Assembly: GCA_022800215.1 (NCBI GenBank)
Contig: JAAWPV010000002.1
Coordinates: 55,191-119,190 of the forward strand
Direction: 5' to 3'
Length of the DNA: 64,000 nt
Origin: Oscillospiraceae bacterium
Lineage (GTDB): Bacteria > Bacillota > Clostridia > Oscillospirales > Oscillospiraceae
Shown here: piece by piece, positions 27,168-63,608 of the stretch
Layout of the letters: the number at the start of each line of letters is the position of its first letter
How positions within the stretch are numbered: the stretch's first letter is position 1
Notes under the pieces: model-generated
Databases searched by the model: none
Told to the model about the DNA's origin: nothing
Seen by the model: the letters and a program-made list of their open reading frames with translations, nothing else
Made by a program: the position numbers and the translations under genes

Positions 27168-27199
27168 AATAGCCGCATACAAAGCTGTATGCGGCTATT
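27168..27199 (-). terminator. Terminator-like hairpin immediately upstream of leuS
   Basis: 14-bp perfect stem AATAGCCGCATACA / TGTATGCGGCTATT with 4-nt loop, reading into TTTT on the minus strand. Confidence 0.6.
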
Positions 27200-27426
27200 A
27201 TAAAGGAAAAAGGAAGGAATTGCAAGGGGAAAGGGAGATTTAGGGAAGCTCGGCCAGCCAGTGGCCCTCCCCACAGGAATCCTCTGTCAGGGGGATGTAC
27301 CATTTGCCCAGGGCGAGTCCTGTCGCAAGAGCGGTGTCCTCCAAAAGCTCCAGTGGTTGGTGGTGCAGCGGTCACTGACAGAGGTGCTGTCCTTGTCTCC
27401 GGCCACCCAGGCGCGGCTGGAAAGGT

Positions 27427-53320: not shown

Positions 53321-54379
53321 ATGGCACAACTTCTGGATTATTTGAAGCAAGCGGTGGCGGACGGTGCCTCTGACCTTTTCATCGTTGCCGGCGGTCCGGT
53401 GAGCGAGAAGCTGGATAAGCGGCTGCGGCCCATCAGTGGGGAGAGGGTCTATCCGCAGGAGACCAGCCAGCTCATCGCTGAGCTTTACGGCCAGGCCGGC
53501 CGGCCTATGGAGCCGTTCCTGAAGCGGGGGGATGATGACTTTTCCTTTTCAGTGCCCGGTCTGGCCCGGTTCCGGGTGAATGCTTACCGTCAGCGGGGCT
53601 CTTTGGCTGCGGTGGTCCGGGTGGTGGCCTTTGATATTCCCGACTATCTGGAGCTGGGGATCCCCAGCGACGTGCTGGATCTGGCTGACGTACAGCACGG
53701 TATGATCCTGGTCACCGGCACGGCGGGCAGCGGAAAATCTACCACCCAGGCCTGTATCATCGACCGGATCAACCGGACGAGGGAGTGCCACATCATCACC
53801 CTGGAGGATCCCATTGAATACCTCCACCGGAACCAGCGAAGCATTGTCTCCCAGCGTGAGATTGCCATTGATACCGAGGGGCACCTTTCCGCTCTTCGGG
53901 CCTGTCTCCGCCAGGCCCCGGATGTGATCCTTCTGGGGGAGATGCGGGATCATGAGACCATCCGTACCGCCATGACCGCTGCCGAGACGGGCCATTTGCT
54001 CATCGCCACCCTTCACACCAAGGGAACGGTGAACACCATCGACCGGATCGTGGATTCCTTCCCCAGCGCCCAGCAGGGCCAGGTCCGGGTGCAGCTGAGT
54101 ATGGTGCTTCATACAGTGGTGTCCCAGCAGCTTCTGCCCAGCACCAGCGGCGGACTGGTGCCCGCCTTTGAGATCATGCATATGAACAGTGCCATCCGCA
54201 GCATGATCCGGGAGAGCAAAACCCACCAGATCGACTCCGCCATTGTGGCCGGCAGCGGTGAGGGCATGATCACGATGGAGCAGTCCATCCTGAACCTGTA
54301 CCGGGCGGGGGAGATCACTGCGGAAACCGCCCTCAGTTACTCCGACAACCCGGATCAGCTTCGGCGCCATATGCGGTAA
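53321..54379 (+). CDS. PilT/PilU-type pilus retraction ATPase
   Basis: ILVTGTAGSGKSTTQACIIDRIN (Walker A), ITLEDPIEYLH, SALRACLRQAPDVILLGEMRDHETIRTAMTAAETGHLLIATLHT, AIRSMIRESKTHQI (PilT signature). Confidence 0.94.
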   Translation: MAQLLDYLKQAVADGASDLFIVAGGPVSEKLDKRLRPISGERVYPQETSQLIAELYGQAGRPMEPFLKRGDDDFSFSVPGLARFRVNAYRQRGSLAAVVRVVAFDIPDYLELGIPSDVLDLADVQHGMILVTGTAGSGKSTTQACIIDRINRTRECHIITLEDPIEYLHRNQRSIVSQREIAIDTEGHLSALRACLRQAPDVILLGEMRDHETIRTAMTAAETGHLLIATLHTKGTVNTIDRIVDSFPSAQQGQVRVQLSMVLHTVVSQQLLPSTSGGLVPAFEIMHMNSAIRSMIRESKTHQIDSAIVAGSGEGMITMEQSILNLYRAGEITAETALSYSDNPDQLRRHMR

Positions 54380-54477
54380 TGTACAAGCTGCACAAAAATG
54401 AAACGAAAAATTTATGAAAAATCACAACAAGCTTTTGAAAGAAAAAGTGGAAAATGTAACCGGTTTTGTAACCGACG

Positions 54478-54610
54478 TATGTTATAATAGCTTATAACCG
54501 CCGCACAAAGTGCCGATTATAGCTATTGCAACAATAGCAAAACCAGCTACGCTGGTTTTGCCGCGAAAGCGGCGCAAGTTGCTTTGCAACTTGTAGCTAT
54601 GTTATAATAG
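54478..54610. repeat. Multi-hairpin element flanked by exact 13-bp direct repeats (TATGTTATAATAG)
   Basis: Direct repeats at 54478-54490 and 54598-54610; internal perfect hairpins at 54503-54513, 54522-54538, 54537-54561, 54560-54573 (GAAA loop), 54575-54593. Confidence 0.9.
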
Positions 54611-54640
54611 GCGCAGAATATAAGAAGGGAGGCGGCTGAG

Positions 54641-55069
54641 ATGCAGGAACGGATCCGTGGAAACGAATACCGCACCACAGTGGTCTGTGTGGATTCCTAT
54701 CACCGGGGTATTCCGGTGGGGCGCTTTTATAATCCCAGCTGCAAGGAAGGAAAAAGCTTTGAGAGCTTAAGTCAGCTTCTTGTCAGAATGGAGGACATGC
54801 TGGACGACATGAAGTTCCCCCAGTCCTTCACAATGGCCAGGACCTTCGGTTCCTCTGTCTCCATTGGGACTGAGGGGACCTCCGGACAGGGTCAGAAGCA
54901 GAGCGGGCAGTTGGCTACCTTCGCGGTGCGGGTCCTTTTCCGGCAGAACGCCAGCTGGCAGGGTGAGGTCACCTGGCTGGAAGGCAAGCGGGAGGAGAGC
55001 TTCCGCAGCGTGCTGGAGTTGATCCTGTTGATGGACGGCGCCTTGCAGGAGAGCATGGGGACCAACTGA
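54641..55069 (+). CDS. Orphan hypothetical protein, 142 aa
   Basis: SD AGGGAGG then ATG at 54641; MQERIRGNEYRTTVVCVDSYHRGIPVGRFYNPSCKEGKSFESLSQLLVRMEDML...; followed by terminator. Confidence 0.75.
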   Translation: MQERIRGNEYRTTVVCVDSYHRGIPVGRFYNPSCKEGKSFESLSQLLVRMEDMLDDMKFPQSFTMARTFGSSVSIGTEGTSGQGQKQSGQLATFAVRVLFRQNASWQGEVTWLEGKREESFRSVLELILLMDGALQESMGTN

Positions 55070-63570: not shown

Positions 63571-63608
63571 GCTATCATATCACTTGTGATATGATAGCTT
63601 GCTTTTTT
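63571..63608 (+). terminator. Rho-independent terminator
   Basis: GCTATCATATCAC-TT-GTGATATGATAGC followed by TTGCTTTTTT. Confidence 0.85.

What the first reader, a model, noticed from the sequence alone, without database searches (positions are those of the whole stretch)
54478..54610. Five-hairpin palindromic element inserted between two exact copies of an extended -10 promoter motif
Seen directly: TATGTTATAATAG occurs at 54478-54490 and again at 54598-54610, exactly 120 bp apart. Almost the whole 107 bp between them is tandem short perfect inverted repeats with 3-4-nt loops: GCAC-AAA-GTGC, GCTATTG-CAA-CAATAGC, GCAAAACCAGC-TAC-GCTGGTTTTGC, GCCGC-GAAA-GCGGC (GNRA loop), CAAGTTGC-TTT-GCAACTTG. 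An outer TAGCTA/TAGCTA pair (54520-54525 / 54594-54599) could close the last hairpins into a cloverleaf, competing with the second hairpin. No known feature class I can name explains this. Possibilities: (a) a non-autonomous mobile or REP/MITE-like palindromic element with a 13-bp duplication; (b) a duplicated promoter with a structured 5' leader; (c) a recombination or slippage-generated switch that moves the promoter. The two TGTTATAAT copies would give either a long structured leader or a short 5' UTR for the gene at 54641.
Basis: partly seen in the sequence, partly recalled or inferred. Interest (0 to 1): 0.85.

Follow-up and report, generated by a model that had tools for sequence, protein, structure and literature searches.

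The report
Hairpin-array insertion splitting a promoter
A roughly 107-base block of back-to-back DNA hairpins appears to have inserted exactly into the core -10 box of a gene's promoter, with that box now present on both sides; related gut bacteria lack this insert but carry other insertions of the same design, so a kind of small mobile DNA seems to land in promoters without destroying them.

Summary
In detail: TATGTTATAATAG occurs at 54478-54490 and 54598-54610, with five abutting hairpins between (single-strand DNA fold z -6.6). Orthologous promoters show what happened. Four same-genus genomes have one -10 at this promoter, as does a more distant relative. A fifth, G008, has two -10 copies around a different 57-nt hairpin insert. 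G008's sister has the empty site. The G008 insert is a dispersed repeat ("type A", my label): its signature hairpin occurs in 37 of 201 family genomes. At a second G008 promoter the sister species again has the empty site, showing a 63-bp insertion exactly at the -10 with the box duplicated. G000 itself holds hairpin arrays of another family ("type B") between -10-like boxes.

The window insert has no second copy in 401 genomes and lacks the type A terminal hairpin. I place it by architecture, position and history, not by sequence membership. Best explanation: insertion of a small non-autonomous hairpin element into an extended -10, leaving two tandem promoter boxes and, from the upstream one, a structured leader. 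MITE-like elements are a known kind; the -10 as target appears new. The enzyme and any effect on expression are unknown.

The parts
54455..54474 (+). Operator-like direct repeat TGTAACCG x2 (54455-54462, 54467-54474), 12 bp apart; part of a promoter block shared by 19 promoters in six genomes of the genus
54478..54490 (+). D1: upstream copy of TATGTTATAATAG; extended -10 TGTTATAAT at 54480-54488 (P1), the ancestral promoter box
   Evidence: single box in orthologs
54491..54597 (+). Inserted hairpin array, 107 bp, no protein gene
   Evidence: absent in orthologous promoters; fold z -6.6 for D1 to D2
54493..54521 (+). Hairpin 1: GCAC-AAA-GTGC core (54503-54513), extended by TATAA/TTATA
54522..54538 (+). 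Hairpin 2: GCTATTG-CAA-CAATAGC
54537..54561 (+). Hairpin 3: GCAAAACCAGC-TAC-GCTGGTTTTGC
54560..54573 (+). Hairpin 4: GCCGC-GAAA-GCGGC
54575..54593 (+). Hairpin 5: CAAGTTGC-TTT-GCAACTTG
54598..54610 (+). D2: downstream copy of TATGTTATAATAG; extended -10 at 54600-54608 (P2)
54627..54632 (+). Shine-Dalgarno-like GGGAGG
   Evidence: read directly
54641..55069 (+). 142-aa gene served by the promoter; no Pfam family; follows a type II/IV secretion ATPase gene (T2SSE, 53321-54379)

Best explanation
A small non-autonomous element, an array of abutting hairpins with no protein gene, inserted into the extended -10 box of the promoter of the 142-aa gene, and the box (13 bp, TATGTTATAATAG) ended up on both sides. 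Shown: related species have one -10 at this promoter; this species has two around 107 bp of hairpins; a related species has another, multi-copy hairpin element in the same -10; at a further promoter the sister species has the empty site. Inferred: the window array got there by insertion with copying of the target. Because the box is copied, both sides keep a promoter element: P1 keeps the old upstream operator and would make a hairpin leader of about 145 nt, P2 would give a short 5' UTR of about 25 nt. The insert is therefore probably tolerated, and may change regulation and mRNA stability (untested).
For: Single -10 at the orthologous promoter in G012, G013, G009 and G006, and a single degenerate box in the more distant L040. 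G008 has two boxes around a different insert at the same promoter; that insert is a dispersed repeat whose hairpin is in 37 of 201 family genomes, reversed control in 3, with compensatory changes beyond all 500 shuffles. Second site: G008 filled against G009 empty, same upstream gene, -35 and terminator. D1 boxes of type A copies have -35-like hexamers more often than flanking DNA, Mann-Whitney p 7e-5. In this genome, type B arrays lie between -10-like boxes, two of them with TTGAAA or TTGACA 17 bp upstream of the first. A type B copy in G015 lies between exact 11-bp TATGATATAAT repeats.
Against: The window array has no second copy in its genome or in 401 family genomes. It lacks the type A terminal hairpin H3, and its HMM and CM matches are weak (4.1 bits; 13.1 bits with E 0.11 over 9.6 kb, two other sites in that stretch scoring as high). 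No significant match to type B beyond 11 nt. No transposase is linked. No strain of the same species with the empty site could be examined.
Confidence: 0.68

Rival explanations
1. Local origin: the hairpins and the second -10 arose in place by replication slippage and template switching on quasi-palindromes (TTATAA, TAGCTA), without a mobile element.
For: No second copy of the array anywhere searched. D1 and D2 contain self-complementary TTATAA, and the array contains partial inverted copies of the box. In type A the variable base agrees in D1, D2 and the inverted copy, which arm-to-arm correction would also produce.
Against: The same promoter carries a proven dispersed element in G008, and the same architecture recurs at unrelated promoters in this genome. 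Five different hairpin sequences with no homology to the flanks are hard to make by local copying.
Confidence: 0.17
2. Selected regulatory leader: the array is kept as a cis-acting RNA (stability element, attenuator or protein-binding leader) of the 142-aa gene, whatever its origin.
For: RNA fold z -4.2. Other genes with the same promoter block have leaders with abutting hairpins, and one has a c-di-GMP-I riboswitch.
Against: Orthologs have short leaders without the array, the G008 leader at the same gene folds no better than shuffles (z -0.35), and there is no terminator on the gene's strand.
Confidence: 0.1
3. A diverged LOOT RNA (RF03000), a structured RNA candidate.
For: Best Rfam match, full length, 54489-54591.
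Against: 21.1 bits against a gathering score of 46.4; the best hits in relatives are a simple inverted repeat and a CRISPR-like repeat array, so the model reacts to hairpin arrays in general.
Confidence: 0.02
4. A promoter switch: recombination between the 13-bp repeats or inversion of the array moves or toggles the promoter.
For: Two identical 13-bp boxes could recombine and restore a single box.
Against: No allelic variants or recombinase were seen; only one allele is available. The boxes are direct repeats, so they would delete rather than invert.
Confidence: 0.03

Closest known systems
Correia / NEMIS elements of Neisseria (promoter-bearing MITEs; review PMC10969869)
   Same: Short, non-coding, in front of genes, carry sigma-70-like promoters, structured transcripts.
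   Different: From my own knowledge those have about 26-bp terminal inverted repeats and TA targets; here the flanks are direct copies of a host -10 box.
REP / REPIN elements moved by RAYT (TnpA-REP) transposases (PMC3116915, PMC3733652)
   Same: Small palindromic, intergenic, non-autonomous.
   Different: Low copy number here, -10 boxes as flanks; type A is found in genomes with no detected Y1 transposase, as assembled.
Pneumococcal BOX / RUP / SPRITE repeats (PMC3049150)
   Same: Small interspersed repeats of a Firmicute.
   Different: No relation by sequence was tested; insertion in the -10 is not a feature I know for them.
Type A hairpin elements found here
   Same: Two extended -10 boxes with the same variable base, palindromic interior, found in the orthologous promoter of G008.
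   Different: Window array lacks H3 and the strict H1, has a different set of hairpins, and is single copy.
LOOT RNA (RF03000)
   Same: Array of short hairpins, some with GAAA loops.
   Different: Score far below the family threshold; no relation shown.

Membership tests
MITE (miniature non-autonomous insertion element) | Short insert without a protein gene | tested here: met
   107 bp; no ORF of 60 aa or more lies within 54491-54597
MITE (miniature non-autonomous insertion element) | Empty site in relatives, flanked by a direct duplication | tested here: met
   Single box in orthologs, 13-bp identical boxes here; other species only, not other strains
MITE (miniature non-autonomous insertion element) | Terminal inverted repeats | tested here: inconclusive
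   Only partial inverted copies of the box inside the array; TTATAA and TAGCTA are self-complementary
MITE (miniature non-autonomous insertion element) | Several copies in a genome or clade | tested here: not met
   Window array: one copy in own genome and none elsewhere in 401 genomes. Met for types A and B
MITE (miniature non-autonomous insertion element) | Mobilised by a known parent transposase | not tested
   No parent element identified; only Y1 transposases were counted
   TGTTATAAT in both
   Degenerate: aligns with an internal insertion, 4.1 bits
   No ATTATAACA-like arm beside D2
   No blastn match; local alignment shares 11 nt only
REP / REPIN | Many copies of one palindrome per genome | tested here: not met
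   Single copy
REP / REPIN | GTAG or CGTC tag at the hairpin foot and a RAYT gene | tested here: inconclusive
   One Y1 transposase gene in G000, not shown to be a RAYT; tags not tested systematically
LOOT RNA (RF03000) | Score at or above the gathering score of 46.4 bits | tested here: not met
   21.1 bits

The most novel reading that the evidence does not exclude
These hairpin arrays form a class of mobile elements of Oscillospiraceae-type bacteria that use the extended -10 box of host promoters as target and copy it, so that every insertion leaves a promoter box at both ends. Near-identical type A copies in one genome (G030) carry A or C at the variable base of TGNTATAAT in both flanking boxes and in the internal inverted copy at once, which suggests that the target sequence is written into the element's end, in direct and inverted form, by an undescribed insertion or correction mechanism.
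Probability: 0.3. Interest if true: 0.8.

Novelty: new variant of a known kind. Interest (0 to 1): 0.57.

Why it matters
Mobile DNA that lands in a promoter usually damages it. An element that lands in the -10 box and leaves a box on both sides can spread through promoters at little cost, adding tandem promoters and hairpin leaders and possibly rewiring expression in abundant, poorly studied gut bacteria. The paired empty and filled sites found here make the insertion rule directly testable.

Tried and rejected
LOOT RNA: sub-threshold, and the hits in relatives are unrelated repeats. Second copy of the window insert in its own genome or family: none. Intrinsic terminator at the array: none on the gene's strand. 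A consensus -35 for either box: the simple scan found none, so both boxes would rely on the extended -10. Membership in type A by HMM and CM: weak. Membership in type B by blastn and local alignment: not supported. The first ortholog alignment A1 used the wrong strand for three loci and was discarded. Some scripted start-codon choices (L124, L128, L116, L122) are unreliable and not used. The row L176 in alignment A2 has its 3' end misplaced by a few bases; it is one row of twenty. Literature searches for a MITE that targets the -10 found none in the open-access library; subscription papers were not searched.

Full report
OBSERVATION. The two 13-bp boxes are identical. The interval between them folds far better than shuffled sequence, both as RNA (z -4.2) and as single-stranded DNA (z -6.6); in the DNA fold five hairpins abut and the two boxes close the structure. 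In a scan of 1.10 Mb of the same genome for two TGNTATAAT boxes (at most one mismatch in the pair) 55-230 bp apart with hairpins between, the window ranks first.

THE PROMOTER BEFORE THE INSERT. The 50 bp upstream of the first box recur in several copies in genomes of the same genus: TGTAACCG repeated with a 12-bp period, then an extended -10. Orthologs of the downstream 142-aa gene show the promoter of that very gene in related species. G012, G013, G009 and G006 have one -10 box and no array. A more distant relative (L040) has a similar block with one degenerate box. The single-box state is therefore most simply ancestral. In protein trees G008 groups with empty-site G009 at 99/99, and G000 lies near empty-site G012 with weak support. 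Two separate insertions at the same box are the simplest reading; several losses of an older insert are not excluded.

THE SAME SITE IN ANOTHER SPECIES. In G008 the same promoter has two boxes (TGGTATAATAG, 69 bp apart) around a 57-nt palindromic insert. That insert is a dispersed repeat: 91% identical at a second promoter of G008, 84-93% in G015, and found in G042, G030 and others. Its signature hairpin TATAATAG-N(8-16)-CTATTATA is present in 37 of 201 family genomes and 28 of 106 genera; the reversed control pattern occurs in three of the listed genomes.

TYPE A. I collected about thirty full-length copies. Layout: box D1 (TGNTATAAT), hairpin H1 (TATAATAGCYGC-AAA-GCRGCTATTATA), an optional GC-rich hairpin, then hairpin H3, whose 3' arm is the second box D2. 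Compensatory changes in H1 and H3 exceed all 500 shuffles and all slid controls; the rows are related, so the shuffle count is not a probability. D1 boxes have -35-like sequences at 16-18 bp more often than flanking DNA (p 7e-5; 35% against 4.5% above a score of 4), and no D2 box reaches that score. The upstream box is thus often the host promoter's own.

A SECOND EMPTY SITE. At the aldo/keto reductase promoter, G009 has TTGACA, then one TGTGGTATAAT followed by CAAAGGG. G008 has TTGACA, then TATGGTATAAT, the array, and TGGTATAAT followed by GAAAAAA, with the same upstream gene and terminator. This shows an insertion of 63 bp exactly at a -10 with the box duplicated.

OTHER ARRAYS IN THIS GENOME. 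G000 carries three copies of another family (type B), hairpin arrays between -10-like boxes. Two of them have TTGAAA or TTGACA 17 bp upstream of the first box. In most type B copies the two boxes are alike but not identical. In G015 a type B copy lies between exact 11-bp TATGATATAAT repeats on the strand opposite to the other copies, as a target duplication would predict.

WHERE THE WINDOW INSERT STANDS. Shown: two identical boxes, an array between, single-box relatives. Not shown: sequence membership. It has no second copy in 401 genomes. Its local similarity to the G008 insert beats 1000 shuffles, but part of that is the inverted -10 that both contain. The HMM and CM matches to type A are weak, it lacks H3, and it shares only 11 nt with type B. 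I file it as an insertion of the same architectural class, not as a member of type A or B.

HOW IT PROBABLY WORKS (inferred). An enzyme acts on the hairpin element and inserts it at an extended -10, which ends up on both sides. P1 keeps the operator-like repeats and would now start about 145 nt before the gene, with a hairpin leader. P2 is an extended -10 giving a 5' UTR of about 25 nt. No terminator lies on the gene's strand. Whether expression changes is untested.

OPEN POINTS. In type A the variable base of the box is mostly the same in D1, in D2 and, inverted, in H3, even among near-identical copies of one genome that differ there (G030, A against C). A plain target duplication does not explain the inverted copy; correction between inverted arms, or copying of the target, could. 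Survivor bias could also make -10 insertions look targeted, because insertions that keep a promoter are the ones tolerated. No transposase is linked: Y1 transposases are not detected in several carriers, as assembled.

COMPARISON. The nearest known kind is the bacterial MITE, above all the promoter-bearing Correia elements (PMC10969869), and more loosely REPINs (PMC3116915). The insertion into the -10 with the box left on both sides is what I did not find described in the open-access library.

Noticed in passing
window 54440-54490; L115-L133: Promoter block GTAACCGGTTTTGTAACCG-N7-TGNTATAAT occurs 19 times in six genomes of the genus (control 0), often before genes for exported or surface proteins; the tandem TGTAAC repeat resembles a response-regulator box (WalR-like, from memory only).
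   Followed up: partly
L115, L126, L130, L131, L132, L116, L128 and similar leaders: Many genes behind that promoter block have two abutting leader hairpins, the first a near-constant AAAGGCGTACGCCTTT palindrome, the second with a variable stem; no Rfam family at the gathering threshold.
   Followed up: partly
L012 1307-1400 (-), G006: A c-di-GMP-I riboswitch (72 bits) lies in the leader of one gene behind the same promoter block.
   Followed up: no
G000:C63:4610-4770, C39:6207-6340, C72:5897-5966 (L242, L250, L251): Second family of hairpin arrays between -10-like boxes in the window's own genome, also in G012, G001, G006 and G015.
   Followed up: partly
G030: L148-L152: Tandem type A copies 122-125 bp apart; near-identical elements differ at the variable base of TGNTATAAT (A or C), and the change is matched in both boxes and in the inverted copy.
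   Followed up: partly
window 27168-27202: Palindrome AATAGCCGCATAC-AAAGCT-GTATGCGGCTATTATA, reminiscent of the type A H1 hairpin (9.2 bits).
   Followed up: no
window 63571-63598: Palindrome GGCTATCATATCA-CTTG-TGATATGATAGC with -10-like arms, followed 56 bp later by TGCTATAAT.
   Followed up: no
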